Below are positions 1 through 17,813 of a DNA stretch of 64,000 bases, piece by piece; positions within the stretch are counted from its first letter, which is position 1, and each line of letters begins with the position of its first letter. This stretch comes from Nitrospira sp. (GTDB taxonomy: Bacteria > Nitrospirota > Nitrospiria > Nitrospirales > Nitrospiraceae). The stretch spans positions 310,001 to 374,000 of the forward strand of contig JACOEM010000002.1 in the NCBI GenBank assembly GCA_024998565.1, written 5' to 3'. The position numbers and the translations under genes are program-made. The notes under the pieces were generated by a model. The model had not been told where the DNA came from. It was given only the letters and a program-made list of their open reading frames with translations, and did not search any database.

Positions 1-1031
1 GTCTTGCTCCCGAACGTCCGCGAGAAGGACACCGACACCGAGAAGAACAGGAGCTTGATCGAGGCCTTGCCCTCCACCTGCCAGGGCGTGGGGCCGGCCA
101 GACGCCCCTTGAACGAGACTCCCACCAGCAGCCGCCCGCGATAGCGCAGGGCCAGCGCGGCGCCGACCTCCACCTCGAAGGCCAAGGGGGCCAATTGGAT
201 AATCGCATCGAAGCCGAGCATGCCATCGAAGCTGAACCCACCCCCCGCGGCATGCAGATCCACCCGGGCGCCGAACTGCACCGTATTGGAGGTGACGGCG
301 ACGTACGCCTGGCAGCGTAACTGGAGCGAGTCGCCATCGGCCAGCTGCAGCGCCAGTCGCTTCAAGGCGGGCAAACCCGGCGGTGCGGCAAAGCGGGGAT
401 GGAAGCCACCGATGGCCAGCACGAACTGCGGCTGACGGCCCCAGCCCGCGCGTAACGCCATGTCGCCGGTCAGGGTGAATTGGAGAATGCGCGAGTCATA
501 CAGCGTCGCATCCAACGAGACGGTCTCGGCGCTCACATCCAGCACACCCAGGGCATCCATGCGGATCTGCACCAACGGATGGCTCTGGTCCGGCAGCAAG
601 ACTTGCAGCCGGCCCAAGACCACGACCCGAATCGGCGCCGGCAGTTCGACGAGCAGGGCCAGGTCGAGCGTGAGCAGGGTGGGACTGCCCCAGCGGAGTT
701 GCACCATCGGGCCCACCACATGGCGACCGGCGGTCGGTGGGAACACGCGGCGCAAGTCACTGAAGATCTGCGGGGCATTCCGGAGGGGATCGGGCGGAAA
801 CAAGATGGAGTTCAACGTCCCGGTCTTGAGGCCGTCGCGCAGGACATCCGTACGGACGGTGCGATGCAACGCGACCAACCCGCCGATGCCGGTGAGGGTG
901 AAGCCCAAGCCGACCGGGATGGGCGCGAAGCCTTCGGCGGTCAAGATGATAATGAGCGAGTAGCCCTTGCTGCCGTCGGGCATCTTGGTGGTGAGCAGGC
1001 CCAGGGCTTTGAGGGCGATCGTCTCGGCCAG
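1..1031. repeat. Direct repeat, copy 1 (identical to 5725-6755)
   Basis: Bases 1-1031 read the same as 5725-6755 (offset 5724, a multiple of three). The first difference is at 1032 (t against c at 6756). Similarity then decays over roughly 100 bp. The left limit is outside the window. The repeat lies inside the 3' parts of the two paralogous beta-rich genes. Confidence 0.9.
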
Positions 1032-2666
1032 TTCGAGTTGGAGCATCCCGCTGTATTCGGCGCGCTGGGGATCGAAGCCCAGAAAGCCGCCCCCGGTCAG
1101 GCCCGGCGTCGTAATGGCTAAGCCGATGCCGGTCGGCGGCTTGAAGCCGAGGGCGAGGTCAAGTGGGCCCAAGTTTCCGCCGCTCGGAGGAAGCCGGAGG
1201 CTCGCAGAGAATCCCACCTGCTCGATGGTCGCCGTGACCGGGCCAAGTTTGATGGCGGCGTTGGTGGCGGCCTCGATGTCGATGCCCTGGTCCTCGCCGT
1301 TGTGCGACCGGACGGCGAGCCGGAGCAGCTGGATCGAAATCGCATTGAACAGGGTGACGTGCAGGGGTAGGGTCGCTTCGAATCCCACCCCGCCCTGCAG
1401 CGAGAGCCCACGGCGGAACGACCACTCACCGGCGAGATCGAACGGAACGGCAAGACCATCCTTAGGGAAAACCTGCGCGAGAAACCCATCACCTTTGGAG
1501 AAATCAATCACCACCTCGCCGTGCTCGACGGCGAAGGCAATCGCCGGGTCCATTGTGGCGCGAGCCGGTGCGGCCGAGTCGACATGCAGGTCCAGTTTCA
1601 CGGAAGCCCGGACGCGCTGCATGGCTAAGCGAGAGCCTCCCGCCGAGCCGATCACGACAAAAGGTTCGGCGTCGCCTGTGCGGACGAACCGGGCCCCCAC
1701 GGTGACGTCCATCGCGCTTCCTGCCGGCAACTGGAAATCGAGATCCAAGGTCGGACGGATGGAAGCGGTCAGATCACTACTGACGCGGACGACCGTATCG
1801 AAGGTCACTTGCCACGCGCTCTCGTCGAGAGTGTCGCTGCGCTCGATCGAGGTCGGTGCGCGCAACGTGACGTCGAGGCCGGGAGGGGAGAACGTCGGAT
1901 TGACTTCGGCGTTGAATCCGAAGGCTTCCAATAGCGCCGGCTCGCCGGACGGGTGCAGGATCTCAGCGGGGATGCCGAATTTCTCGTGTAGTAACCTCTG
2001 CAACATCCTGAACAGCGTCAGGCCGTCGAACGAGGGCGCGCCCCAGCCATAGACGTCGCGCAACAATCCCGTCGGGTCGGTGAAGAGCTGCAGCAGGCGA
2101 TTGAGATGCAGGGTCTTCCGGACGTAGGGACCGTGAAGCGACCCTTCCGGCAGGCCTGGCTCGTCGACGACCTCGATCGCGCCGGTGCCGAGCAGCAGCA
2201 GGGCGATCTGAGGGAAGCGGACTTCGAAGTAGTCGGCCACCAAACGATGCAGGAGCCGTTCCGGGAACAGACGAGCGAAGGCGGCGAGTTCAGTCCTGTG
2301 TTGAGGTGGAAGGGCTGCATCATTGCCGAGTGTGTGGAGAGCCCGCACTATTCCCTCGAGGCCCTGGAGCGTGGCACGCAGTTGTTGCAGCAAGGCGGCG
2401 ACCGTGGCGGCGATGGCTGCGCGATCGTCCTGCGTCACGGCCTGGGCGAGGTCGTTGAGCAGGGGGTCGAGTTCGGCGGCAGCGGCAGCCGTGGCGGTAA
2501 GCGCGTCAGTCAGCGAAGTCGCATCCGGCTCAATCTCGAAGACGCGCAGGCCCAACCAGGGCAGCACGTCGTCCAGCGTCCCGGTTTCGGCGCGCTGCAC
2601 CAGCGGTTCGAACACTCGCGCGAGTTCACCGGCCAATTGTTCGAGCGACCCGACGGCTGTACTCAT
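1..2666 (-). CDS. Large beta-rich protein, copy A (partial, runs off left edge)
   Basis: The frame is open from an ATG at 2666 to the window edge, giving at least 888 residues with the C-terminus missing. The ATG overlaps the stop of the S8 protease gene (ATGA), so translation is probably coupled. The first ~250 residues look helical. The rest is rich in short hydrophobic beta-type stretches with recurring GPVTA and FKPPTGIGLA motifs and a GFLGFDPQRAEYSG segment. It is a paralogue of the gene at 8426-5103 in the same frame offset; the 3' 1031 bp in the window are identical at DNA level and the 5' part is diverged. From memory it resembles DUF6603-type proteins; I could not check this. No catalytic motif or signal peptide is evident, so the function is unknown. 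Confidence 0.8.
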   Translation of the reverse strand, partial: MSTAVGSLEQLAGELARVFEPLVQRAETGTLDDVLPWLGLRVFEIEPDATSLTDALTATAAAAAELDPLLNDLAQAVTQDDRAAIAATVAALLQQLRATLQGLEGIVRALHTLGNDAALPPQHRTELAAFARLFPERLLHRLVADYFEVRFPQIALLLLGTGAIEVVDEPGLPEGSLHGPYVRKTLHLNRLLQLFTDPTGLLRDVYGWGAPSFDGLTLFRMLQRLLHEKFGIPAEILHPSGEPALLEAFGFNAEVNPTFSPPGLDVTLRAPTSIERSDTLDESAWQVTFDTVVRVSSDLTASIRPTLDLDFQLPAGSAMDVTVGARFVRTGDAEPFVVIGSAGGSRLAMQRVRASVKLDLHVDSAAPARATMDPAIAFAVEHGEVVIDFSKGDGFLAQVFPKDGLAVPFDLAGEWSFRRGLSLQGGVGFEATLPLHVTLFNAISIQLLRLAVRSHNGEDQGIDIEAATNAAIKLGPVTATIEQVGFSASLRLPPSGGNLGPLDLALGFKPPTGIGLAITTPGLTGGGFLGFDPQRAEYSGMLQLELAETIALKALGLLTTKMPDGSKGYSLIIILTAEGFAPIPVGLGFTLTGIGGLVALHRTVRTDVLRDGLKTGTLNSILFPPDPLRNAPQIFSDLRRVFPPTAGRHVVGPMVQLRWGSPTLLTLDLALLVELPAPIRVVVLGRLQVLLPDQSHPLVQIRMDALGVLDVSAETVSLDATLYDSRILQFTLTGDMALRAGWGRQPQFVLAIGGFHPRFAAPPGLPALKRLALQLADGDSLQLRCQAYVAVTSNTVQFGARVDLHAAGGGFSFDGMLGFDAIIQLAPLAFEVEVGAALALRYRGRLLVGVSFKGRLAGPTPWQVEGKASIKLLFFSVSVSFSRTFGSK

Positions 2667-5089
2667 GGTTGCGGCATGGTCCGTGATCCGGTTGAAGCCG
2701 TGAAACTCTCCGTCAGCAGCATGGAGACAAAAAAGTGGTACCGGTCGAGGCTCTGCCGCAGTCTTGGACTGCCCTGTCTGGCCAGCAGGTCCAGACAACG
2801 GTCGAGGTATCGGGAGGCTGATTCTTTCTCGATCGACAGGGGACCGTCAACGGCGTTCGTGCCGTGGATGAGCCGCCGCAAGAGCGCCGGTCCCGCCGCT
2901 CGATGCCACATGGTCGCGATGCGCCGGTTGCTGTTGATCAGGCGCCGGGCTTCGCTGAAGTGGCGGCTGATGGCAGCGGCGACATGTTCGCCTTCAGGAT
3001 AGTCCTTGAGCCGCTCGCGGAGCGTGCGGAGCCAGGACGTGAACGGCGCAGAGTTCCCGGTGATGGCCGACGCTTTTGGCTCGCGCTGGATCGATTCATC
3101 CAAGCCGGACGGCGGAGAGATCCGAGGGACGCCTCCACCGCCTCCGGCACCGCCGCCCCCGGCTGCTGCTGCACGCACCGCATCGATGGCGGCTTGGATG
3201 TTGAGTTTTCCCCCGCCCCAGGTCGCGTCCCATCCGCCGGCCGGCCGGTCTCGCGCCGTCGCCTGCAGGTGGCGGACGATGTCGGCCCTCGTCAGGCGGG
3301 GATTTTCTTCCAGCAGCAGCGCAATGGCGCCGGCCACATGGGGGGCCGCCATGCTGGTGCCGGTCAGGTCTTCATAGAGACAACAACAGGCATCGGGGCA
3401 GCAGTCGCAACAGCGCCCGCGTAAGTTGGCGGCATCGGCTTTGGCGGACGTGATCTCCAACCCCGGCGCGGCGATGTCCGGCTTGCGGTTAGTCGCGGCG
3501 CCCCTTGCGACGGGGCCTCGGCTCGACGAGGACACGATGCCCGTCGAGGGCCAGCAATCGCAGCGACTCGTGCGCGACGCGTGGTTGGCGACCGTGATGA
3601 CCTGGTCGGCGGTCCCGGGAATGCTGAGGGTCGCGTCGAGGCTTGCCCGCACCTTGCCGTCATCCGGAGTTTTCGGCGGGAGAAACCAGGGTGTGTTCGT
3701 GCCGCGTTCGATCCAGCAGTGGAAATTGACATCCCCGGCATTCGGGTTGGCGAGCGTCAGCTTCCAAGGGCCGTGGAGGATGTTTCCACGCCGGGGGCGT
3801 GCGATGGTAATACGAAAGTTATTGTCCCGGTCATGTTCGCCGTTGATGGTCCCGTCGATCGAGACTCGAGTCTGACGGTTGGCGGCAGCCGCGGGATTGG
3901 CGATAAACGGCGGGGCGGCGGCATTGGCCGGAAGGTCGGTGCCATGGTTGACCACCCCGCTGGCGGCGCCACCCGGAGCGGTGACGGTCAGGTTCAGCGT
4001 GCCGGCCCGGTCGTACCAGAGGTCGAGCAGCGTTTCAAACCTGCGACCCTCGGGTACTTCGAATTCAATCTCCAGATTCCCGTTACTCGGCACGCGACCC
4101 TGCACGTGCCTGAGTGCGCCGCCTTCGTTGCCGGCCGATTTGACGACGAGCTGCGGATGGTGCAGGAAGTCGCCGGTTTCCACGTGGGCGTCGATCGCCA
4201 GCTCGACGGCGCTCGTGCCGTCATGTGGGCCCAGGTTGTCGCCTTGACTGATGTTGATGACCTTCGGTTTGTCGATGCTGCCGAGAAACCCGAAGATGAA
4301 ATCGATGGCTTCAATAAGGCGCTGGTTTTCTCCGATCTCCTCCGCGTCGGTATAGTCGTAGCGAACGACGATGAGCTCGGCCTCCGGTGCCACGCCCACA
4401 TAGGTTTGGCTGACGTGGCAGCAGGTAGGAGGCGTGCCGTTACCTGCGGCGATGCCCGCGACATGGGTGCCGTGGCCCTCCCGGTTGTTGCTCGCATCGA
4501 CATCCTTGGTGCGTACCCTGGCCCGGCCTTTCAGCGCTTGGGTGAGTCGGTCCTGGTCGTAGACGACCCCGATATTGTTGGGTCCCCTCGTATCGCCCGC
4601 CCGGAAAGGCAACATTTGATCCCAGATCGCGAGAATCCTCGATTTCCCGTTCGCATCGACGAACGAGCCGTGCCGCCAGTCGATGCCGCTGTCGATGATG
4701 CCGACGACGACGCCTTTTCCTTTGCGCGACAGGGGGCCGGTGTGTACGGCCGTGGCGCGGATTTCTTTCAAACTGAAGTTGAGTTCGCGATGCATGCGGC
4801 GCGGCCCCTCCACGGCGGTGACGTGGGGGATCGCTGCGAGATCGTCGAGGCGGTCGAACGCGATGGTGCCGGTGGCGATGCCGTAGCCCTTGCGCGGATG
4901 ACGCACGAGCGTGCGCTGCACGAAGCCGACGGCGGTCAGGTCGTTCACGTTGCCGGTGAAGGCGACGATGACGCCCACCTGCTCACTCTTTGCGCGGGAG
5001 CGTGTTCTTGGCACGGCTGCGGCTGCCGCATCGGCTGCCCGGTTGGTACGAAGTTTCGACCGCAGTCCGGGATCGAGTTTTTTGTTCAT
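2663..5089 (-). CDS. Subtilisin-like serine protease (peptidase family S8)
   Basis: An 808-residue protein with the full S8 triad: Asp133 in IIDSGID, His206 in GHGTHVAG and Ser579 in GTSMAAPHVAG. The oxyanion Asn is in SAGNEGG near 322. A long insert of about 250 residues between the Asn and Ser regions looks like a beta-sandwich of the kind found in multi-domain subtilases. A cysteine-rich stretch (CCDCCPDACCC, ~560-570) lies just before the catalytic Ser. After ~640 a glycine linker leads to a helical C-terminal extension of ~150 residues. No clear signal peptide is seen. The start at 5089 has GAGG 8 nt upstream, 13 nt after the stop of the large beta-rich gene, and the stop overlaps copy A. 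It is predicted to be proteolytically active on an unknown substrate, perhaps the large neighbours. Confidence 0.93.
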   Translation of the reverse strand: MNKKLDPGLRSKLRTNRAADAAAAAVPRTRSRAKSEQVGVIVAFTGNVNDLTAVGFVQRTLVRHPRKGYGIATGTIAFDRLDDLAAIPHVTAVEGPRRMHRELNFSLKEIRATAVHTGPLSRKGKGVVVGIIDSGIDWRHGSFVDANGKSRILAIWDQMLPFRAGDTRGPNNIGVVYDQDRLTQALKGRARVRTKDVDASNNREGHGTHVAGIAAGNGTPPTCCHVSQTYVGVAPEAELIVVRYDYTDAEEIGENQRLIEAIDFIFGFLGSIDKPKVINISQGDNLGPHDGTSAVELAIDAHVETGDFLHHPQLVVKSAGNEGGALRHVQGRVPSNGNLEIEFEVPEGRRFETLLDLWYDRAGTLNLTVTAPGGAASGVVNHGTDLPANAAAPPFIANPAAAANRQTRVSIDGTINGEHDRDNNFRITIARPRRGNILHGPWKLTLANPNAGDVNFHCWIERGTNTPWFLPPKTPDDGKVRASLDATLSIPGTADQVITVANHASRTSRCDCWPSTGIVSSSSRGPVARGAATNRKPDIAAPGLEITSAKADAANLRGRCCDCCPDACCCLYEDLTGTSMAAPHVAGAIALLLEENPRLTRADIVRHLQATARDRPAGGWDATWGGGKLNIQAAIDAVRAAAAGGGGAGGGGGVPRISPPSGLDESIQREPKASAITGNSAPFTSWLRTLRERLKDYPEGEHVAAAISRHFSEARRLINSNRRIATMWHRAAGPALLRRLIHGTNAVDGPLSIEKESASRYLDRCLDLLARQGSPRLRQSLDRYHFFVSMLLTESFTASTGSRTMPQP

Positions 5090-5102
5090 CGAGGCATCCT
5101 CG

Positions 5103-8100
5103 TCACCGTTCTACCAGAGCGACCGCGTGGCCCCGTCGCCGTTTCCGCGCCGGGGCTTGGCCGGCGGCGCCGAAGGGGGCGACGCGGGCCAACACTGCCG
5201 CCGAGAGTACGTAGCCCGGCTTCGGCCGCTCCGGCGGCCGCGTCGGATCAATCAAGAGCGTCTCATAGGCAATCGGCGCCGCGAGCCCGGCCTCGTCGTC
5301 CACCGCCAGGTCGTCAGCGGCCACCGTGAGGCCGCCCTGTAAGGGCACAAACGCCGGTTGCGCCAACTGCTCATCCTCGCGCAGGTCTTCGAACTGGGCC
5401 AGGGCGAAGGGCTCGTGGACCGGCGTCGTGCGCCAGGGCTGCGCGCCGGCGCGATCCGTCACCGTGACCGTCACCGTCGTGGGCCCGCCGACCAGCGGGG
5501 CCGTCCCCAGCTTCGTGAGGGGTCTGTTCAACGGCGCGATCCGCTCGCGCAACGTCAGCTCCGCCCAGGGATGCACGCGCAGGCCGCTGGCCGGCGGAGG
5601 CGTCTCCCGAATGGTTACCACCGGGGCGCTGCTGCGGGGGACTGCCCCACTCCAATTGCGCCGGTCGGCCAGAGCCGTCGCGATCAAGCCCACGACATCC
5701 ACCGCCGCCGGCAGCGGCGGCGCCGTCTTGCTCCCGAACGTCCGCGAGAAGGACACCGACACCGAGAAGAACAGGAGCTTGATCGAGGCCTTGCCCTCCA
5801 CCTGCCAGGGCGTGGGGCCGGCCAGACGCCCCTTGAACGAGACTCCCACCAGCAGCCGCCCGCGATAGCGCAGGGCCAGCGCGGCGCCGACCTCCACCTC
5901 GAAGGCCAAGGGGGCCAATTGGATAATCGCATCGAAGCCGAGCATGCCATCGAAGCTGAACCCACCCCCCGCGGCATGCAGATCCACCCGGGCGCCGAAC
6001 TGCACCGTATTGGAGGTGACGGCGACGTACGCCTGGCAGCGTAACTGGAGCGAGTCGCCATCGGCCAGCTGCAGCGCCAGTCGCTTCAAGGCGGGCAAAC
6101 CCGGCGGTGCGGCAAAGCGGGGATGGAAGCCACCGATGGCCAGCACGAACTGCGGCTGACGGCCCCAGCCCGCGCGTAACGCCATGTCGCCGGTCAGGGT
6201 GAATTGGAGAATGCGCGAGTCATACAGCGTCGCATCCAACGAGACGGTCTCGGCGCTCACATCCAGCACACCCAGGGCATCCATGCGGATCTGCACCAAC
6301 GGATGGCTCTGGTCCGGCAGCAAGACTTGCAGCCGGCCCAAGACCACGACCCGAATCGGCGCCGGCAGTTCGACGAGCAGGGCCAGGTCGAGCGTGAGCA
6401 GGGTGGGACTGCCCCAGCGGAGTTGCACCATCGGGCCCACCACATGGCGACCGGCGGTCGGTGGGAACACGCGGCGCAAGTCACTGAAGATCTGCGGGGC
6501 ATTCCGGAGGGGATCGGGCGGAAACAAGATGGAGTTCAACGTCCCGGTCTTGAGGCCGTCGCGCAGGACATCCGTACGGACGGTGCGATGCAACGCGACC
6601 AACCCGCCGATGCCGGTGAGGGTGAAGCCCAAGCCGACCGGGATGGGCGCGAAGCCTTCGGCGGTCAAGATGATAATGAGCGAGTAGCCCTTGCTGCCGT
6701 CGGGCATCTTGGTGGTGAGCAGGCCCAGGGCTTTGAGGGCGATCGTCTCGGCCAGCTCCAGTTGGAGCATCCCGCTGTATTCGGCGCGTTGGGGATCGAA
6801 GCCCAGGAACCCGCCGCCGGTCACCCCCGCCGTTGCGATCGCCAGGCCGATGCCGGTCGGCGGCTTGAAGCGCGGCGACAGGCCGAAGAGGCCAAGGTTG
6901 CCTTCCATGAAAGACAGATCAACGGTGACACCGATCCGTTCGACGGTCGCGGTGACCGGGCCGAGCACTAAGCGGGCGTTGATACTGGTTTCCGTGTCGA
7001 TGCCTTCTTCGCCCACGTCGATGCCGATGTGGGCCGCATCCAGCTTCACGGGGCCGACGGCCTGCTGCAACGGCAACGCCACGTGGAGTCCGCCGCTGCC
7101 TGGGAACGACAGTCCCTCTCGGCTGCTCCAGCGCAACGTGAGATCGAACGGGGCCTGGACAGACTCGCGCCCGACCGTGCCTTGGATGAAGTTGTCTGCA
7201 TCTGCGAGTGAGAGGTCGAAGCGGAGCCCCAGCAGCGCAAGCTCCACGAACGTCTCCATGCGGGTCGCCGAGGAGGCGTCGAGGCCGCCTGCGACGGCGA
7301 ACTGCTGATAACGCAGGGCCGAGCCGCCGGGGAACCGCACCAACGGCTTGAACTCGCCGGCGGGTTGGCCGTGCCGAAGCCCCAGCGTGAAGCGGCCGTT
7401 GAGGGCATCGGCGAGCCCGGCTCCCTTGCGAAGGGTGAGGTCCTGCCCGGGCCTGAGGATCACCGCCAGCCGCTTGAGTACGTCCACGTTGCCGGACCAT
7501 TCAATCCGCGTGTCCTCCAGGCGAGGGAACGGAACGGCACCCTCTGCGTGGCCTTGAAAGATGGGGGCGAGGCCGAGGCCGGCATCACTCGCGCCTGCCG
7601 ATGTGGGGGCGGCGCCGAAGAGCGAGAGGCCCAGTCGCACCCCGAATGCGGAGCCGCGTTCCTCGTGCAGGAAGGTGATGAGTTGCGGCGGTGGGTTGGA
7701 ACTTGTTTCGGCTCGTCCCAGCCAGGCCTCTTGCGCCTGGGGACTCATGGGTTGGATACGACTCCGTAGCCCCAGCGTTTGCAGCAGTTGACTCAGCCTG
7801 GTGAGGAAGGTCATCGATTGGAAGTCGGGCGTATGCCAGCCGTAGGCCTCGGTAAAGAGCTGATCGGGGCTCGTGACCGCTACCTTGAAGAGGTGATAGT
7901 TGATCGTGGCGCGCACGTGTTCGACTTGGAATTTTGCTGGATCCGCGGCGTAGTAGGGATAGTCGATGATGTTCAGCAGGTGGAGGACGGCGTAACTGAG
8001 CGGCGAAGTCTGGGCCAGGAAATTCGCGACGAGAAAATCGAAGAGGCGTCTCGGCAGTTCTTTATGGATCTGCGTACGCTCGACGTAGTCGCCGAAGGCC

Positions 8101-8426
8101 GCCAGTTTGGCGGGCAGGGTCTGCGCCAGGTCGTGAATCTGCCGCGTGAGGGCTTCGATCGCGAGCGCGAGGTCGGCGATGCGGCCTGCCATGGCCAGGT
8201 CGTCGTTCCATTCCGCATCGGACGCGCCGATGACCGCGTCGAGCTTTGTGAAGAAATCGCCGAGATTGAGTGCGGCCAGGCCGATGTCGTCGAGGCCGGG
8301 CGGCAGTTCCCAGCCCAATAGTTTCAGGAACGCGCGCGCCTCCTCGACATCGCCCTGGACGATTTCGAGGGACGACAGCAGCCGCCCGATCCCGGCGGTG
8401 GCGTTCTGGATTAGATGATCGGCCAC
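5103..8426 (-). CDS. Large beta-rich protein, copy B (1107 aa)
   Basis: I place the start at GTG 8426, not at an upstream in-frame codon at 8726. AAGGA lies 9 nt before the GTG, and a start at 8726 would overlap the phospholipase-like gene by about 300 bp. The chosen start overlaps it by only 16 bp. The protein has a helical N-terminal ~230 residues with an LHLLNIIDYPYYA segment. A long beta-rich body follows, with motifs such as GIGGLVALHRTVRTD, LFPPDPLRNAP and VVGPMVQLRWG. The C-terminal part is basic and proline-rich and ends RKRRRGHAVALVER. Its 3' part is identical to copy A over at least 1031 bp. It may belong to the DUF6603 group (from memory). No enzymatic motif was recognised; a structural or carrier role is only a guess. 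Confidence 0.85.
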   Translation of the reverse strand: MADHLIQNATAGIGRLLSSLEIVQGDVEEARAFLKLLGWELPPGLDDIGLAALNLGDFFTKLDAVIGASDAEWNDDLAMAGRIADLALAIEALTRQIHDLAQTLPAKLAAFGDYVERTQIHKELPRRLFDFLVANFLAQTSPLSYAVLHLLNIIDYPYYAADPAKFQVEHVRATINYHLFKVAVTSPDQLFTEAYGWHTPDFQSMTFLTRLSQLLQTLGLRSRIQPMSPQAQEAWLGRAETSSNPPPQLITFLHEERGSAFGVRLGLSLFGAAPTSAGASDAGLGLAPIFQGHAEGAVPFPRLEDTRIEWSGNVDVLKRLAVILRPGQDLTLRKGAGLADALNGRFTLGLRHGQPAGEFKPLVRFPGGSALRYQQFAVAGGLDASSATRMETFVELALLGLRFDLSLADADNFIQGTVGRESVQAPFDLTLRWSSREGLSFPGSGGLHVALPLQQAVGPVKLDAAHIGIDVGEEGIDTETSINARLVLGPVTATVERIGVTVDLSFMEGNLGLFGLSPRFKPPTGIGLAIATAGVTGGGFLGFDPQRAEYSGMLQLELAETIALKALGLLTTKMPDGSKGYSLIIILTAEGFAPIPVGLGFTLTGIGGLVALHRTVRTDVLRDGLKTGTLNSILFPPDPLRNAPQIFSDLRRVFPPTAGRHVVGPMVQLRWGSPTLLTLDLALLVELPAPIRVVVLGRLQVLLPDQSHPLVQIRMDALGVLDVSAETVSLDATLYDSRILQFTLTGDMALRAGWGRQPQFVLAIGGFHPRFAAPPGLPALKRLALQLADGDSLQLRCQAYVAVTSNTVQFGARVDLHAAGGGFSFDGMLGFDAIIQLAPLAFEVEVGAALALRYRGRLLVGVSFKGRLAGPTPWQVEGKASIKLLFFSVSVSFSRTFGSKTAPPLPAAVDVVGLIATALADRRNWSGAVPRSSAPVVTIRETPPPASGLRVHPWAELTLRERIAPLNRPLTKLGTAPLVGGPTTVTVTVTDRAGAQPWRTTPVHEPFALAQFEDLREDEQLAQPAFVPLQGGLTVAADDLAVDDEAGLAAPIAYETLLIDPTRPPERPKPGYVLSAAVLARVAPFGAAGQAPARKRRRGHAVALVER
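5725..6755. repeat. Direct repeat, copy 2 (identical to 1-1031)
   Basis: This is the second copy of the 1031-bp identical segment, inside copy B of the beta-rich gene. It could result from gene conversion or a recent segmental duplication between the paralogues. An assembly artefact is also possible, because the window edge falls inside copy 1. Confidence 0.9.
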
Positions 8427-10672
8427 GGGAGCAGATCCTTCTTGTCGTCGACCTTGCAGGTTTTGAAATCGAACTTCTGCGCCTTGTTGCGCAGGGTGGA
8501 CGTGCGGATCTTGAGCGCGGCCAGATAGTCCTTCGGGCTGGTCTCCGGCATCCAGGGCAACAGATGCGGCGCATGGTCGGCGGGCGGCGCCTGTTCGTTC
8601 TTGATGGCATCCACATGATGTGTGGCGGCGGCTTCCCATTCGGCGACCCACGTCATGGAAGTCGGGTCGGCGGGCAAGGTCTTGAGCCGATCCGGCAGCG
8701 AGGCAAGCCCCAGGTGCTCCTGCCACAGTTCATGCCGCAGGGCCTTGACCACGCCGTTCTCCGGCAGGCCGGCAATGCCGCTGTACATCACCAGGTTCAG
8801 TTCCACGCTGCGCGACGGCTGGCGCGATCGACTGGGAAGGGCATGTCGGGCGGTGCGTGTGTAAATGTCTTTCACAAGTTGGGGAATGTCGGCCACGTCG
8901 CCCAACGTCTCGCGGATGGTCTCCAGCGTTTCCTTGAAGTCGAAAATCAGTTTGTAGGCGACGAAGAGCAGGACGAGCAATGTCTTGAGATCGAACAGGA
9001 TCTGCTTGAAGACGAAGAAAAAGAGATACCAGAACAATTCCCAAAGAAATTTCCCCGGGTCGTTGGTGAGCTTCGCCTTTTCGATCGCGCGGTCGAGGAT
9101 GGAGCCGGTGATGATCAGGCCGATCTCGTGGTAGTTCATCGAGGTGCCGTCGAGGTTCGCGCTGCCGGCCGTGGCCCACACGTCGTCGATGATGGCGACC
9201 TTGCTGTGGACATACACCGGCATCACGTCGTAGCGCCGCGGATTCCCCGGGCCGCCGCTGCCTGCTTTCTCCGATCGGCTCCAGAGGGTGTAGGCGCCCA
9301 GGTGATGCCCGCCTGTTTTGGCGGCGCTGCGGAGTTGGTTGACGTTATCGATCTGGCGATCCGGATAGCCGGGCAGGTCGGGGCGCAGGTTCAGGACCAG
9401 GATGATCTGCAACCGGGGTTTGGTCGTATCTTTCATCCTCGCGATGAGCGCATCGACGATCTCGGGAGAGGTGAAGTACTGGTTCTCGATGTAGATGTAC
9501 CGCTGAGCATTGGCGATGGCGCGCTCGTAGGCTTCGAGGATGCCGGTTTCGCCGTAGGGCAGGTCTTCATCGCTCGGGTTGACGCGCTTGATCGAGCCGC
9601 CCGGCAGCGTGCGCAGAACCTGCACCGAGGCCACGTCGCCGTCGGGCGTCACCGCCAGTTCGGGAAAGGTCTTCGGCGGAGGGATGAGCATCGGTTTGCC
9701 GGTGGCATTCCAGATGCTCGCGAACGTCTTTTCGATGTGAGACACCGCCGGGCCTTTGAGATCGGTGTTGACGTCGTGCATGAGCGAGCCCTTGTGGCGC
9801 GCGTCCCGGATGGCATGGTCGGTGTCGCTGAAGTAGTACTGTTTCAGCGGCGACCCCATGAGGATGGCGTGGTCCCCATCCACCACGATGGCCTTGGCAT
9901 GCAGCAGGGCGAAGCCCTTGTTGAACGCATTGGTGCGCACGCCCGCCGTCTGGGCAAAAAACTCCGCCACCTCGGTCACGGTGTCTTCCGCGGAGAGCGG
10001 CAGGTTCGTCACCAGCACGTTCACCGGCTTGCCGCCCTTGTTCTTGAGCACCTCTTCCAGAGTGGCCTCCGCCGCCTGCTTGCAGCCGGTGGAGGGAGGG
10101 TTGAAACGGTCGAAGCTGGTTTTTTTGAACTTGGTGATGAAATTGTTGCCGACGTCGAAAAACAGCGTCATCAGGTTGATGGATTCGGTGGCGCCCTCGG
10201 CGGCGTCGGTCACCGCGGGGAACATCTTCGCCCCGTCGATCAAGTGTGTGATGCGGTTGTGGTGAAAAAGCGCGACGGGTTCTCCGACTGCGGGGTTCAA
10301 CGTCGTATGGGTGACGAGCCAGCCCTCGATGTTGTTGCGATGGATGGTGATGGTGCCGACCTCGTGGTTCGAGTCGGTGACATCTTTCGCTTCCGGGGTT
10401 TCGTGCAGGAGGCGCGTGCCGAAGAGTGCCGGGTCTGCGTGGATGGGGCCGAATATCTGGGCGACGAGGTCGGGATTCCGATCGACCTTCCAGGTGCGGT
10501 AGGCGTCCGGCGAGTAGGAAATGAGAAAGGTGCCGTCGCCTTCTGTCTTGCCGACGCCCAGCACATCGTCTTCGCTAAAAACAGGATCGAAGTCGAGCGC
10601 GCGAACGGTCAAGCCGGCGATGCCGGCCCCCCGCTCATCGATGATACGTCCATGGATGCTGATGTTGGCCAT
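8411..10672 (-). CDS. Phospholipase D-like protein with two HKD motifs
   Basis: A 753-residue protein. Two HKD motifs are intact: H258-x-K260-x4-D265 (HAKAIVVD) and H489-x-K491-x4-D496 (HSKVAIID), each followed by a GS/GSANLDG motif. This is the arrangement of active phosphodiesterases or transphosphatidylases of the PLD superfamily. Residues 1-75 resemble a transthyretin/carboxypeptidase-regulatory-like beta domain (GRIIDERGAGIAGLTV). Two hydrophobic segments (~544-560 and ~562-577) could be a membrane hairpin or an amphipathic membrane-binding region. A ~150-residue helical C-terminus follows. No signal peptide is seen. It is the first gene of the four-gene minus-strand operon and overlaps the next gene by 16 bp. 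The substrate (phospholipid or nucleic acid) cannot be decided from sequence. Confidence 0.9.
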   Translation of the reverse strand: MANISIHGRIIDERGAGIAGLTVRALDFDPVFSEDDVLGVGKTEGDGTFLISYSPDAYRTWKVDRNPDLVAQIFGPIHADPALFGTRLLHETPEAKDVTDSNHEVGTITIHRNNIEGWLVTHTTLNPAVGEPVALFHHNRITHLIDGAKMFPAVTDAAEGATESINLMTLFFDVGNNFITKFKKTSFDRFNPPSTGCKQAAEATLEEVLKNKGGKPVNVLVTNLPLSAEDTVTEVAEFFAQTAGVRTNAFNKGFALLHAKAIVVDGDHAILMGSPLKQYYFSDTDHAIRDARHKGSLMHDVNTDLKGPAVSHIEKTFASIWNATGKPMLIPPPKTFPELAVTPDGDVASVQVLRTLPGGSIKRVNPSDEDLPYGETGILEAYERAIANAQRYIYIENQYFTSPEIVDALIARMKDTTKPRLQIILVLNLRPDLPGYPDRQIDNVNQLRSAAKTGGHHLGAYTLWSRSEKAGSGGPGNPRRYDVMPVYVHSKVAIIDDVWATAGSANLDGTSMNYHEIGLIITGSILDRAIEKAKLTNDPGKFLWELFWYLFFFVFKQILFDLKTLLVLLFVAYKLIFDFKETLETIRETLGDVADIPQLVKDIYTRTARHALPSRSRQPSRSVELNLVMYSGIAGLPENGVVKALRHELWQEHLGLASLPDRLKTLPADPTSMTWVAEWEAAATHHVDAIKNEQAPPADHAPHLLPWMPETSPKDYLAALKIRTSTLRNKAQKFDFKTCKVDDKKDLLPWPII

Positions 10673-10860: not shown

Positions 10861-11352
10861 TCACTTCACTGCCGGCTGTGGCATGCCATAGCCATTTGTC
10901 CAAGCCAGATCGATCACTCGCTCATTCGACTGTGAGAGCGACAATTGCTGATCGAACAGCGTGGGATACGAACCGATCATCGTCGCCTGAAAGTCCGGGT
11001 ACCGGTCTGCAGAGACGCCGGTGAGGGCAGCCAACGACGCAAGATATTCTCCCTGGCCGCGGGCGATGTCCGCGCGGAGATTTTCGTGGGTATGCATCGC
11101 GAAGACGGTGGCCTTTTGTTTGGCCCTGAGCAGACGGCCGTCGGCGAGCGCGCCCGGTGTGGTGCTCGACGTGAATTCGGTCGTCGGATCGAGGAACTCT
11201 TTGGTGGCTCCGGATGTGCCGTTGGTGAGTTGGGTCGTCGCGTCGAACGGCGCCTTCGTCAACTCGACGGTGGCATTCGTCATACAGCCGCCGAGGGTGA
11301 GGAGCAATCCGGGCATCAGTGCAAAACGTCTTGTTATGAATCTTGTCATCAT
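10861..11352 (-). CDS. Small secreted protein or lipoprotein, DUF3015-like
   Basis: The start at 11352 (MMTRF) has a perfect GGAGG with a 6-nt spacer, so the longer frame from 11385 is rejected. The product is 163 aa. A basic N-terminus and hydrophobic stretch end in TLGGC, a plausible lipobox. The central part is Thr/Ala-rich. The segment ENLRADIARGQGEYL followed by LASLAALTGV matches what I remember of the DUF3015 family of small periplasmic proteins of unknown role. It lies upstream of the PLD operon in the same direction, separated by about 190 bp with a promoter-like site, so it is probably a separate transcript. Confidence 0.7.
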   Translation of the reverse strand: MMTRFITRRFALMPGLLLTLGGCMTNATVELTKAPFDATTQLTNGTSGATKEFLDPTTEFTSSTTPGALADGRLLRAKQKATVFAMHTHENLRADIARGQGEYLASLAALTGVSADRYPDFQATMIGSYPTLFDQQLSLSQSNERVIDLAWTNGYGMPQPAVK

Positions 11353-13141: not shown

Positions 13142-13469
13142 ACTCTTTCCTATCCGTGAAACAGTTTCCGGCACTCCATGAGGAGATAGACCGGCCGGGT
13201 GTGTTTTCCCTTGTTATCGGGCACGTGGCCGATGGCGGCGCCGGTCACCACCATCCCCGGAGGACATTCCCATTTGTGCGTGCCCGCGATGCCTCCCAGT
13301 CCGAACGCATCCGGCACCCTGGGACTGACCTGGATGGATTGCGGATCTTTTCCCTTTAACCCGTTCTCGTGGATATCCTCCGCGGTGGCATGTTCCAGCC
13401 CTACCTGCAGGAGACTCTCCCGGAGTTGCAGCTTGTTGTAGACCTCGTACAGGCCAATGGAAAGGCGGT
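13142..13469 (-). pseudogene. Truncated 3' copy of the secreted Cys-repeat protein gene
   Basis: These 328 bp are identical to 16741-17068, the 3' part of the intact gene at 17570-16749. The copy keeps the last ~106 codons and natural stop (13150). Its 5' part is replaced from 13470 by unrelated DNA, so there is no signal peptide or proper start. An in-frame ATG at 13524 would give a chimeric 124-residue product, but it comes from the transposase-remnant region. Most likely it is a dead fragment left by recombination. Confidence 0.85.
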
Positions 13470-13679: not shown

Positions 13680-14390
13680 CTACTTCCGCTTCTTCGCGGC
13701 TGTCGGTGGAGATGGAATATCGAGCGAACGGACAACCGCTCGTGAGCCCGATTCTTTCATCCAACGGAGGTCTGCTTCACACTCGGCACGGCTTGGGTAC
13801 GGCCCGGCGCACTCGGCCACAGTTCGCCCGTCGCTGTGACGAAGGCGCCACCGGACCTGTTTCTCTCGATCACGGTAAATTTCATAGAATCCAAGGCGTG
13901 GCGCCGATGGAATACCAGGGAGCCCCAACGCCCCCCAATCGGGATGCGCCCGCAGCTGCTCACCTGTAATGCGTCCTGCCGCGCGGATTCCTTTGGGCGC
14001 ACGGCCGAGCAGGGCTTGGACCTCGGCCAGATCGACCGGCCGTTGGCGCAACTTAGAGAGGTCCGTCACGTTGATCAAGATGTCCCCCAGCGGAGCTTCG
14101 TGGGCGATCGGCACATCGACATAGACGACGGCCGTGCCCTGGCGAGTAAAGCTGTGTCCCGGCTGTTGCGGCCTGGAAATCCCGCGAACCGATCGCGGAT
14201 CGTTGAACGAATGCACGATCGCCGTCGTGCCACCGACCGTGACCTCAGCCAGATAGCTTCCTTCCAGAACCGGCCGTTGGACGGCCGGCCCTTCCAGTGG
14301 CTTCATGCCGGCGAGGCGAATTCCTCGTGCACTAAATTCGAGCGCGACCCGGATACGCCGTTGCCCGCGCCATTGGGGGTGTGGGCTCAT
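13680..14390 (-). CDS. YegP/DUF1508-domain protein coupled to the M64 peptidase
   Basis: The start at 14390 overlaps the stop of the M64 gene (ATGA) and has GGAGG 7 nt upstream, so I reject the longer frame from 14468. The product is 236 aa. The C-terminal ~55 residues (FYEIYRDREKQVRWRLRHSDG, then Cys and RAECEADLRWMKES) match the YegP fold, a small beta-beta-beta-alpha domain common in stress-type proteins. The N-terminal ~150 residues are unrecognised, with a possible beta-sandwich. It ends in a short basic tail. Translational coupling suggests a product that works with, or protects against, the peptidase; that is inference. Confidence 0.7.
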   Translation of the reverse strand: MSPHPQWRGQRRIRVALEFSARGIRLAGMKPLEGPAVQRPVLEGSYLAEVTVGGTTAIVHSFNDPRSVRGISRPQQPGHSFTRQGTAVVYVDVPIAHEAPLGDILINVTDLSKLRQRPVDLAEVQALLGRAPKGIRAAGRITGEQLRAHPDWGALGLPGIPSAPRLGFYEIYRDREKQVRWRLRHSDGRTVAECAGPYPSRAECEADLRWMKESGSRAVVRSLDIPSPPTAAKKRK

Positions 14391-16177
14391 TCGAACACCT
14401 CCAGATCGGTGAGAATCTTTCGCCCGCAGACCGGACACCAGGGCGGATTGTTTTGGTTCATCCGGCATTCCAGTACCGGCCGGAAGAGCCCCGTCGCATA
14501 GGAGCCTCCGGCCCCTTCAAACGCGCCCACGCTGGTGCGTCGATTCCACCCGGCGGGTGGACGGGCTGCATTCGTCGGTAACGGGGTATTGGGGGCGACG
14601 AGGTCAAACCATTTGAGCATGTTCCACTCTGAGGGCGCCTCCGAGGTATTGGGGTACCTGCTCACGCCGGTGAACGTCTCCGTGGCGCTGACGTATTCAT
14701 CGCCCAGGGCAAACAGGTTGTGCCCCATTTCATGGGCGACGGTCGTCATTCCGCTGCCTTCCGTAAAATAGCCGGTGCCGGGGCCGACCGAGCTGCACCC
14801 ACCCCAGGTGTCCGACTTGACGAGCACAATGACATGGTCGGCATCGGGAGCGAACCGCTGGCGGAGTTTTTCGATACGCGCATCCGTAAACGTCGACATA
14901 TCGAACCAACAACGGTCCCAGCTGTCGTTGGGGATGAGACCGAGCCGGGAGGATTTGAACACATCGGAGATGATAGTGCCCCTGGAGTTGTAGCGTCGCT
15001 CTCGAACGCCGGACTCCACCGACACCAAGTCGACACGAACGACACGGAACGCGCCTTGATGCAACAGCAGCAGGTCCAGGCGCAACGCGCCCAGAACCTG
15101 GCTGGTTACCTGTGACCGATAGGCAGTCATGTCGGCCTCGGCATACCCGTCCCCCATGATCAGGATCGAGAGTTTGGGATCAGATCCTGGGCTGCCCACC
15201 GCATGCTCGGCGCGATCGTGAAGGGCTGTGCCGTGGTTCACCCAGGTCCAGCGTGCCCCATCCCACGTGCGCTCGTACAACCGTCCGCTGGCCGTGGATA
15301 CAAACAGCTTGCTGTCCATCATGGCGGCACCGGGGGCGGCGTTGACGGTGGTGCCGGGTGGGGTGTCGTGGTCCACCCAGACCCACCGACTGCCGTTCCA
15401 TACCCGTTCATACAGGTGCCCATTGCCGGTTCCGACGAACAGCTTGCTGTCCATCATCGCCGCGCCGGGGGCCGTGGCGACGGTCGTCGCGGGCGGAGCG
15501 CCGTGGTCGACCCAGACCCACTGACTGCCGTTCCACACTCGCTCGAACAGTCGTCCGTCCGCGGTGCCGACGAAGAGTTTGCTGTTCATCATCGCCGCCC
15601 CAGGCGCCGTGGCTACCGACGTGCCGACCGGCAGGCCATGATCGACCCAGACCCATTGGGTACCGTTCCAGGCACGTTCGTAGAGCCGCCCGTTCGCGGT
15701 GCCGACGAAGAGTTTGCTATCCATCATGGCTGCACCAGGGGCTGTCGCGACGGTGGTGGCGGGCGGCGTGCCGTGGTCGTTCCACACCCAACGCCCCTGG
15801 TCGTTCCGCCAATGCCGCTCCCACAGATGCCCGTCGTCCGTGACGACGAAGAACTTCTCGTTCATCATTTCAGCGCCGGGACCGTGCACGATGGGACGAT
15901 TGCCGGGACGGCCATGGCTGTTCCAAGCCCAGCGTCCGAGATCGCTCCGCCAATGCCGCTCCCACAGACTGCCGTCGGCCACGACGACAAACAGCTTTTC
16001 CTCCAGCATCGCCGCGCCGGGCGTGCCGGTGACAGCACTGCCGGCAGGTCTGCCGTGGTTGATCCAGATCCACTCGTCTCCATCCCACCATCGCTCGTAC
16101 AGGTCGGGGAAGTCGCCGTTCAGGCGTGAGACAAAGAGCTTGCTGTCCAGCATGGCCGCGCCGGGTCCGCTAATCAT
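14387..16177 (-). CDS. M64-family metallopeptidase with N-terminal seven-repeat lectin propeller
   Basis: 596 aa. Residues 1 to ~325 are seven tandem repeats of ~46-48 residues. Each has the pattern PGAAMMDSKLFV...DGRLYER.WNG..WVWVDHG, as in PLL-type fucose/sugar-binding beta-propellers. The C-terminal domain (~335-596) has the metal site H482-E-x2-H486 in HEMGHNLFALGDEY, which is characteristic of IgA-peptidase M64 enzymes. It begins with LSILIMGDGYAE, the usual opening of that domain, and a CPVC pair lies near the end. GAGG precedes the ATG by 5 nt. No signal peptide is visible, so the export route is unclear. Predicted role: a carbohydrate-targeted secreted protease. It shares a transcript with the YegP gene. 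Confidence 0.88.
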   Translation of the reverse strand: MISGPGAAMLDSKLFVSRLNGDFPDLYERWWDGDEWIWINHGRPAGSAVTGTPGAAMLEEKLFVVVADGSLWERHWRSDLGRWAWNSHGRPGNRPIVHGPGAEMMNEKFFVVTDDGHLWERHWRNDQGRWVWNDHGTPPATTVATAPGAAMMDSKLFVGTANGRLYERAWNGTQWVWVDHGLPVGTSVATAPGAAMMNSKLFVGTADGRLFERVWNGSQWVWVDHGAPPATTVATAPGAAMMDSKLFVGTGNGHLYERVWNGSRWVWVDHDTPPGTTVNAAPGAAMMDSKLFVSTASGRLYERTWDGARWTWVNHGTALHDRAEHAVGSPGSDPKLSILIMGDGYAEADMTAYRSQVTSQVLGALRLDLLLLHQGAFRVVRVDLVSVESGVRERRYNSRGTIISDVFKSSRLGLIPNDSWDRCWFDMSTFTDARIEKLRQRFAPDADHVIVLVKSDTWGGCSSVGPGTGYFTEGSGMTTVAHEMGHNLFALGDEYVSATETFTGVSRYPNTSEAPSEWNMLKWFDLVAPNTPLPTNAARPPAGWNRRTSVGAFEGAGGSYATGLFRPVLECRMNQNNPPWCPVCGRKILTDLEVFE

Positions 16178-16740: not shown

Positions 16741-17068
16741 ACTCTTTCCTATCCGTGAAACAGTTTCCGGCACTCCATGAGGAGATAGACCGGCCGGGTG
16801 TGTTTTCCCTTGTTATCGGGCACGTGGCCGATGGCGGCGCCGGTCACCACCATCCCCGGAGGACATTCCCATTTGTGCGTGCCCGCGATGCCTCCCAGTC
16901 CGAACGCATCCGGCACCCTGGGACTGACCTGGATGGATTGCGGATCTTTTCCCTTTAACCCGTTCTCGTGGATATCCTCCGCGGTGGCATGTTCCAGCCC
17001 TACCTGCAGGAGACTCTCCCGGAGTTGCAGCTTGTTGTAGACCTCGTACAGGCCAATGGAAAGGCGGT
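16741..17068. repeat. 328-bp direct repeat (identical to 13142-13469)
   Basis: This is the intact-gene copy of the duplicated fragment. Identity starts at 16741 and ends at 17068; flanking bases differ on both sides. Confidence 0.9.
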
Positions 17069-17570
17069 TTGTCGGCACCGTGGTCTCGAACAGTGTGCCT
17101 TCTTTTTCGTAATTGAAGAGGAACGGGCTCTTCTCCCAACGGGGCCCGACCGTGCCGTCGGCCTGCAATTCCCGGCAGGAAAACCGGAACGATTCCCACG
17201 TGCGGTTGTTCACCTCTTTGATGAACAGCCCTTGCAGCACGCCGTCCTGAAACATTTCCAGGCAGGATACGAACCGGCTTTCGACGACCTTGTCCTTCGC
17301 GTAATCCAGATCGTTGCAGGCCACCCATACGGAACCCACGGGCCCCTTAATCGGCAGATGCTTCGGCACGCAGCCGGCAATCACGTAGGTGCGATAGTCG
17401 TTGACCGTGTATTGCGGGTCGTGGTCATCCAACGGATGGCCGGCGATGATGTAGCCGCTTCCCGGACGCACGGCACCCGTCCCGGCCCACGGCGTGGAGG
17501 CCGGCAGTAGCAGCGCGGCTCCCAGCGCAACCAGAAGCCCGACACGCGGCGCACACGTTCGTATGGTCAT
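16749..17570 (-). CDS. Secreted protein with two Cys-type (lectin-like) repeats, function unknown
   Basis: The start at 17570 has AAGGAGG with an 8-nt spacer; the longer frame from 17597 is rejected. 273 aa. A Sec signal peptide is clear (MTIRTCAPRVGLLVALGAAL, cleavage near STPWAG). The mature part has two related units. One ends ...VLQGLFIKEVNNRTWESFRF-SCREL (~105-140). The other is KWECPPGMVVTGAAIGHV...YLLMECRKL at the C-terminus. Both show a Cys-hydrophobic-Gly-...-Cys-Arg pattern common in secreted sugar-binding or adhesion modules. I cannot name the family. The 3' third is duplicated at 13142-13469. Confidence 0.75.
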   Translation of the reverse strand: MTIRTCAPRVGLLVALGAALLLPASTPWAGTGAVRPGSGYIIAGHPLDDHDPQYTVNDYRTYVIAGCVPKHLPIKGPVGSVWVACNDLDYAKDKVVESRFVSCLEMFQDGVLQGLFIKEVNNRTWESFRFSCRELQADGTVGPRWEKSPFLFNYEKEGTLFETTVPTNRLSIGLYEVYNKLQLRESLLQVGLEHATAEDIHENGLKGKDPQSIQVSPRVPDAFGLGGIAGTHKWECPPGMVVTGAAIGHVPDNKGKHTRPVYLLMECRKLFHG

Positions 17571-17813
17571 GAGACATCCCTCCTTGCTGTGAGGCATCGG
17601 ATTGTACGTGAGTGGCGCCGCTCTGGCGAGAGGCTGGCGGGGCCGCCCAGGATCGTGACATGGACGAAATGTAAGGGAACAGGAATGGAGGCTAAGACCC
17701 TGTACCTGATCTGGCTGAACGTGAACGATTCGAGACGCCGTGGATATGCGAGAGGCGGTAGGGGGATGAAGGAGCGACTGATGGCCGCATACAGGCCCGG
17801 AGGAACAGTTCTC

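What the first reader, a model, noticed from the sequence alone, without database searches (positions are those of the whole stretch)
1..10672. Four-gene operon: PLD-like enzyme, large beta-rich protein, S8 protease, second large beta-rich protein
The genes overlap or are 13 bp apart, all on the minus strand. An intact two-HKD enzyme and an intact subtilisin triad flank two >850-residue proteins with no recognised catalytic motif. I know no named system with this layout. A secreted or cell-associated complex in which the protease processes the large proteins and the PLD acts on membranes is one reading, e.g. an antagonism or predation module.
Basis: partly seen in the sequence, partly recalled or inferred. 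Interest (0 to 1): 0.75.

Follow-up and report, generated by a model that had tools for sequence, protein, structure and literature searches.

The report
Swappable enzymes on a shared carrier
A bacterial operon joins a phospholipase-like enzyme and a protease to two copies of an uncharacterised carrier protein and three more uncharacterised proteins; the same set recurs in at least a dozen bacterial and archaeal phyla with the enzyme swapped for others, which suggests an undescribed modular system for loading different enzymes onto one shared machine.

Summary
It is an eight-gene operon, probably from Nitrospira: PLD, DUF6603a, S8 protease, DUF6603b, then three large proteins and a coiled-coil protein left of the window. 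DUF6603 plus the proteins I call G865, G1772 and G571 form a fixed core, found in the same order in haloarchaea, Actinomycetota, Bacteroidota, Pseudomonadota, Chloroflexota, Cyanobacteriota and others. The gene directly upstream of DUF6603 varies: S8, trypsin-like, PLD, PhoD-like, M64, tyrosinase, amidase, putative caspase-like. DUF6603 splits in two. Its N half follows the upstream enzyme across phyla (8 label changes; shuffled 28) and ignores phylum. Its C half does the opposite. In each Nitrospira genome the two N halves are about 20% identical, the C halves 91-100%. So the window holds two enzyme-carrier cassettes on one core. Most likely DUF6603's N half holds its enzyme and its C half docks on the core. 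Presentation or delivery outside the cell is inferred. No described system fits. Architecture is strong; biological role is open.

The parts
8411..10672 (-). Enzyme of cassette 1: PLD-like protein, 753 aa, two HKD motifs (residues 258-265 and 489-496), hydrophobic segment near 558-576; stop overlaps DUF6603a start by 16 bp
5103..8426 (-). DUF6603a, 1107 aa, carrier of cassette 1
   Evidence: PF20248 2.6e-131; AF2 model pLDDT 80, pTM 0.52
7227..8426 (-). Enzyme-specific N half of DUF6603a (residues 1-400): helical 1-240, then beta
5142..6854 (-). Common C half of DUF6603a (residues 525-1095): long amphipathic beta-meander, near-identical to the C half of DUF6603b in the same genome
2663..5089 (-). 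Enzyme of cassette 2: S8 subtilase, 808 aa, triad D133/H206/S579
2666..3112 (-). C-terminal domain of the S8 enzyme, shared with trypsin-like enzymes of other modules and, in 61 related genomes, found only in the protease of this kind of locus
1..2666 (-). DUF6603b, 1092 aa, carrier of cassette 2; continues left of the window (contig G000:C2:309388-312666). The operon then goes on outside the window on the same strand with G865 (C2:306770-309367), a coiled-coil protein Gcc (about C2:305940-306800), G1772 (C2:300594-305912) and G571 (C2:298876-300591)
   Evidence: PF20248 2.9e-124 on the part in the window; G865, G1772 and G571 match no known family; G865 AF2 model pLDDT 82, no known fold found
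10861..11352 (-). DUF3015 small protein, lipoprotein-like start; upstream of the operon in many Nitrospira genomes; membership doubtful

Best explanation
The operon encodes a modular enzyme-loading complex. Each enzyme (here a PLD and an S8 protease) is made together with its own DUF6603 partner. The N-terminal half of that partner is specific for the enzyme and probably binds it, and may keep it inactive. The C-terminal half, a long amphipathic beta-sheet, is the common plug that joins a core made of G865, G1772 and G571. With two cassettes and one core, this genome can load two enzymes. Cassettes are gained, lost or exchanged by recombination in the C half, which gene conversion keeps uniform within a genome. 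The complex most likely presents or delivers the enzymes to targets outside the producing cell. SHOWN: conserved gene set and order, the variable enzyme slot, the split of DUF6603 into an enzyme-tracking and an organism-tracking half, concerted evolution of the C half, and a shared C-terminal domain on unrelated proteases. INFERRED: physical binding, assembly of one complex, extracellular action, and benefit by antagonism or nutrient release.
For: Core: among 75 named loci, G865 follows DUF6603 in 64 of 65 with room, G1772 in 55 of 57, G571 in 14 of 16, in at least 12 phyla including archaea. G571 and G865 occur in nearly the same genomes as DUF6603 among 61 relatives. Slot: a co-directional ORF abuts or overlaps DUF6603 in 72 of 80 cases, with at least nine unrelated families. 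Split: on 42 dereplicated loci the N-half tree needs 8 enzyme changes (minimum 7; shuffled mean 28) and 26 phylum changes (shuffled 27.1); the C-half tree needs 25 enzyme (27.7) and 19 phylum (26.9, 0 of 300 as low). G865 and G1772 trees behave like the C half. Within each large enzyme class, enzyme distance follows N-half distance with C controlled (partial r 0.81-0.96), not C with N controlled (-0.57 to 0.08). Concerted evolution in ten genomes. S8 and trypsin-like enzymes share one C-terminal domain; in 13 relatives it occurs once each, beside DUF6603 wherever the contig shows it. Extracellular hints: FG-GAP propellers in actinobacterial G865, a lamin-tail domain in a haloarchaeal G571, a peptidoglycan-binding domain in an upstream ORF.
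Against: No interaction was tested. Cassette inheritance alone could produce much of the enzyme/N-half link, because a crossover in the conserved C half carries everything upstream with it. No signal peptide was seen by a hydropathy check, so no export route is known. No immunity gene was found, which a toxin system usually has. The beta-sheet match is to sheet type only (Foldseek TM 0.16 or less by query length) and the model's pTM is 0.52. Loci were the best 80 of 321 hits, so they lean towards the query.
Confidence: 0.55

Rival explanations
1. Intracellular conflict or suicide system: the enzymes act inside the producing cell after a trigger (for example phage infection), with DUF6603 and the core as sensor and scaffold. 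This would resemble effector-associated-domain systems, which also use trypsin-like, S8 and caspase-like effectors.
For: No signal peptides by hydropathy. S8, trypsin-like and putative caspase-like enzymes (conserved SHG and KGCKIG), with a shared C-terminal domain on two protease folds, recall PMC7159879.
Against: No NTPase or known sensor domain in the core; no PADLOC match for the core. PhoD-like, M64, tyrosinase and amidase enzymes and FG-GAP or lamin-tail inserts are commoner outside cells (general knowledge).
Confidence: 0.17
2. Non-aggressive enzyme display or scavenging scaffold: the complex holds hydrolases at the surface or in the medium to obtain phosphate, peptides or lipids.
For: The enzyme list is mostly hydrolases; the module is widespread in soil, water and haloarchaeal organisms; no immunity gene seen.
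Against: Secreted hydrolases normally use signal peptides and need no four-protein core; several enzymes (amidase, PLD with hydrophobic segment) point to cell envelopes. Overlaps with the best explanation in all but purpose.
Confidence: 0.17
3. DUF6603 is not an adaptor: enzyme and N half travel together only because they are adjacent, and recombination in the conserved C half creates the pattern.
For: The C half is the only long homologous stretch between cassettes, and crossovers there would move all upstream sequence together.
Against: Conversion stops before residue 400 in every genome, and each enzyme class keeps its own N-half lineage across phyla while the C half follows the organism. 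Without functional coupling the N half should drift apart from enzyme class.
Confidence: 0.11

Closest known systems
T6SS effector adaptors/chaperones (Tap/Tec DUF4123, Eag DUF1795, DUF2169), reviewed in PMC10433429
   Same: Effector-specific adaptor gene next to a variable enzyme effector; couples it to a shared machine
   Different: Different families; no Hcp, VgrG, PAAR or sheath in the locus; no T6SS VipB in this genome; here one adaptor also carries the common docking half; present in archaea and Actinomycetota
NTP-dependent conflict systems with effector-associated domains (PMC7159879)
   Same: Trypsin-like, S8 and caspase-like effectors coupled by shared small domains
   Different: No NTPase in this core; EADs pair homotypically, whereas the domain here was seen only on the proteases; core proteins are unrelated to known families
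Polymorphic toxin systems and Rhs-type beta-shell toxins (named from general knowledge)
   Same: Constant part plus interchangeable enzymatic part; recombination in the constant part swaps cargo; large beta-rich carrier
   Different: Enzyme is a separate gene upstream; variable N half and constant C half, the reverse of the usual layout; no Rhs repeats by Pfam; no immunity gene seen
Pfam PF20248 DUF6603
   Same: Both large proteins are members
   Different: The Pfam model covers only about residues 453-1018; the enzyme-specific N half lies outside it, and no paper in the searched library mentions DUF6603 or PF20248

Membership tests
DUF6603 (PF20248) | Score above the curated cut-off over the domain | tested here: met
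   439 and 416 bits against a cut-off of 27
The four-gene core described here | DUF6603, G865, G1772 and G571 in this order on one strand | tested here: met
T6SS or extracellular contractile injection system | Sheath, tube, spike or baseplate genes in the locus | tested here: not met
   No such match among the operon proteins; VipB absent from the genome; a PF04984 sheath lies on another contig, and relative G029 has the module without a PF04984 match
STAND/EAD NTP-dependent conflict systems | NTPase component linked to the effector | tested here: not met
   No NTPase family in the core proteins; SMC-like weak hits only for the coiled coil
Polymorphic toxin system | Toxin domain fused to a trafficking region, with an adjacent immunity gene | tested here: not met
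   Enzyme is a separate ORF; genes abut or overlap, leaving no room for an immunity ORF between enzyme and DUF6603
Subtilase (peptidase S8) | PF00082 with Asp/His/Ser triad | tested here: met
PLD superfamily | Two HxK(x)4D motifs | tested here: met
Cardiolipin synthase / DISARM DrmC | NCBIfam cut-off | tested here: not met
   49.9 bits against 281 (ClsB); 28.2 against 133 (DrmC)
Outer-membrane beta-barrel | Closed amphipathic beta-barrel with export signal | tested here: inconclusive
   Amphipathic meander resembles porins, LptD and ApoB (Z about 12-14.5 but rmsd 9-15 A); no signal peptide by hydropathy; also in archaea and Actinomycetota

The most novel reading that the evidence does not exclude
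A previously undescribed, cross-domain delivery or display machine made of four uncharacterised proteins, whose carrier subunit (DUF6603) has an enzyme-specific half and a universal docking half, so that unrelated enzymes can be exchanged as two-gene cassettes.
Probability: 0.5. Interest if true: 0.92.

Novelty: categorically new. Interest (0 to 1): 0.82.

Why it matters
If right, this is a large family of machines, with 321 hits in 84,980 species from a single strict motif, that has no name and no paper in the library searched. It spans bacteria and archaea. DUF6603 N halves would become markers for finding new secreted or delivered enzymes, as T6SS adaptors did, and interchangeable N halves would suggest a general way to load different cargo. 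It turns several 'hypothetical protein' families into one testable system, in organisms such as Nitrospira whose interactions with neighbours are poorly understood.

Tried and rejected
Phage origin: no DUF6603 match in 50,697 phage records or in viral contigs; PHROG hits mainly to generic protease and PLD domains. Known defence: PADLOC gives only generic PLD and subtilase hits plus weak coiled-coil hits. Solved relatives by sequence: for DUF6603 mainly designed helical bundles matching the N-terminal helices, which is composition, and nothing convincing for G571, G865, G1772. A known fold for G865: none found. A common docking domain across all enzyme classes: not found; only S8 and trypsin-like enzymes share one, and three putative caspase-like groups share a catalytic region. 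Assembly artefact for the duplicated C halves: rejected, because single-contig genomes (for example N. defluvii, G023) have the same layout. A fixed link to contractile systems: rejected by G029 and by sheath-positive genomes without the module. Promoter and terminator scans were uninformative.

Full report
OBSERVATION. The window is G000:C2:310001-374000 of a 4.13 Mb genome. The four minus-strand genes exist and are intact. Gene 1 has two HKD motifs and PF13091; gene 3 is an S8 subtilase with all three catalytic residues. Genes 2 and 4 are both Pfam DUF6603. Gene 4 runs out of the window. The extra sequence shows the operon continuing with G865, a coiled-coil protein, G1772 and G571, named here by their lengths. 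G865, G1772 and G571 match no informative family in Pfam, PHROGs, NCBIfam or PADLOC; the coiled coil gives only weak, generic coiled-coil hits. The organism is most likely a Nitrospira: the closest named records, with 93-94% protein identity to DUF6603a, are a Nitrospiraceae bacterium and a Nitrospira sp., though the genome itself is unnamed.

THE CORE. tblastn found DUF6603 on plasmids of Streptomyces, Nocardia, Rhizobium, Paraburkholderia, Gemmatirosa and four haloarchaea, and the annotated records among them showed the same run of large, mostly hypothetical genes behind it. A blastp map confirmed the order DUF6603-G865-G1772-G571, also in the unannotated records. A scan of 84,980 species' genomes with one strict motif gave 321 relatives; the best 75 loci come from at least 12 phyla. 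Where the contig had room, G865 followed DUF6603 in 64 of 65, G1772 was present in 55 of 57 and G571 in 14 of 16. Among 61 relatives, 27 have DUF6603, 26 have G571 and 26 have G865, 25 of them the same genomes. The exceptions are two fragmentary assemblies and one lone divergent DUF6603.

THE VARIABLE SLOT. The gene directly upstream of DUF6603 usually abuts or overlaps it, often by 4 or 16 bp. Clustering of 100 such genes and Pfam give S8, trypsin-like, PLD, PhoD-like, M64, tyrosinase, amidase, a beta-lactamase-fold protein, DUF4056, and three related groups. In one of these groups, conserved SHG and KGCKIG motifs suggest a caspase-like His/Cys pair (inference). Several groups have no known family. 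In Nitrospira the first slot holds PLD, PhoD-like or caspase-like genes and the second S8 or M64; some species have a single cassette. So the window is two cassettes, PLD-DUF6603a and S8-DUF6603b, on one core.

THE TWO HALVES OF DUF6603. On trees of 75 sequences the enzyme label needs 11 changes on the N half (residues 1-400) and 32 on the C half (440-1018), while phylum needs 29 and 20. To remove near-copies I kept 42 loci under 70% identity and used a mixture model. N half: enzyme 8 (minimum 7, shuffled 28.0), phylum 26 (shuffled 27.1, no signal). C half: enzyme 25 (shuffled 27.7, as low in 24 of 300), phylum 19 (shuffled 26.9, none of 300 as low). G865 and G1772 behave like the C half. Inside five enzyme classes the enzyme's distances follow the N half with the C half held constant (partial r 0.81-0.96, 0 of 500 permutations) and not the reverse. 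In ten Nitrospira-family genomes the two N halves of one genome are 19-29% identical and the C halves 91-100%. Between other genomes of the genus and this one, C halves are 78-89% at DNA level, and N halves are 70-95% identical where the enzyme is of the same kind, against 17-28% where it differs or is a distant S8. The C half is therefore homogenised within each genome, and homogenisation stops at the N half. That is expected if the N half must match its enzyme. It could in part also follow from crossovers in the only homologous stretch, so binding is inferred, not shown.

A SHARED DOMAIN ON PROTEASES. S8 and trypsin-like slot enzymes, which have unrelated folds, share a C-terminal region; the conserved part is about 110-150 residues. 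Among 61 relatives it occurs once in each of 13 genomes, beside a DUF6603 match except in one fragmentary assembly where a short contig hides the neighbour. It is probably a docking domain (inference).

STRUCTURE. The AF2 model of DUF6603a (pLDDT 80, pTM 0.52) has a helical N-terminal region, a beta region, then some twenty long antiparallel strands, most with one hydrophobic face. The best comparisons are porins, LptD and ApoB, at high rmsd, so only the sheet type is informative. G865 (pLDDT 82, pTM 0.71) has no significant Foldseek hit and Z at most 4.6, which does not prove a new fold.

WHERE IT ACTS. No enzyme class shows convincing signal peptides by a hydropathy test, though many relatives of these enzymes are normally exported (start codons are uncertain). 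Some lineages add modules common in extracellular proteins: FG-GAP propellers in actinobacterial G865, a lamin-tail domain in a haloarchaeal G571, peptidoglycan binding in an upstream ORF. This tilts towards action outside the producing cell.

VERDICT. The architecture (fixed core, swappable enzyme, two-part carrier) is well supported; I would put it at about 0.8. Delivery or display outside the cell is a reasoned guess at about 0.5. No described system fits: contractile systems, EAD/NTPase systems and polymorphic toxins each fail a defining feature. The library searched has no paper naming DUF6603 or PF20248; it holds open-access papers only.

Noticed in passing
window 14387-16177 (-): M64 metallopeptidase with an N-terminal beta-propeller that is 38-39% identical to an insert in G865 of Micromonospora (L082, L083); a fragment 93% identical to its end lies upstream of the operon in N. 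defluvii (L069:3-266). Possibly an orphan enzyme of the same system.
   Followed up: partly
window 13142-13401 and 16741-17000: 260 bp direct repeat, 100% identical, overlapping a 124-aa ORF and the end of the 282-aa ORF at 16749-17597.
   Followed up: no
window 10861-11352 (-): DUF3015 protein with lipoprotein-like start, upstream of the operon in many Nitrospira genomes.
   Followed up: partly
G005:C22, G016:C19, G027:C50, G003:C88 and others: Draft Nitrospira assemblies often break inside DUF6603, as expected where the two near-identical C halves confuse assembly.
   Followed up: partly
G000:C7:184384-184674 (+): Contractile sheath PF04984 in the same genome, unlinked; common in the genus.
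   Followed up: partly
L119, L131: Tandem arrays: G1772-G571 of one module directly followed by another enzyme-DUF6603 pair (Bacteroidota, Methanosarcinales).
   Followed up: no
L080, L094, L089, L128 upstream ORFs: Several slot proteins match no Pfam family; possibly new enzyme families.
   Followed up: no
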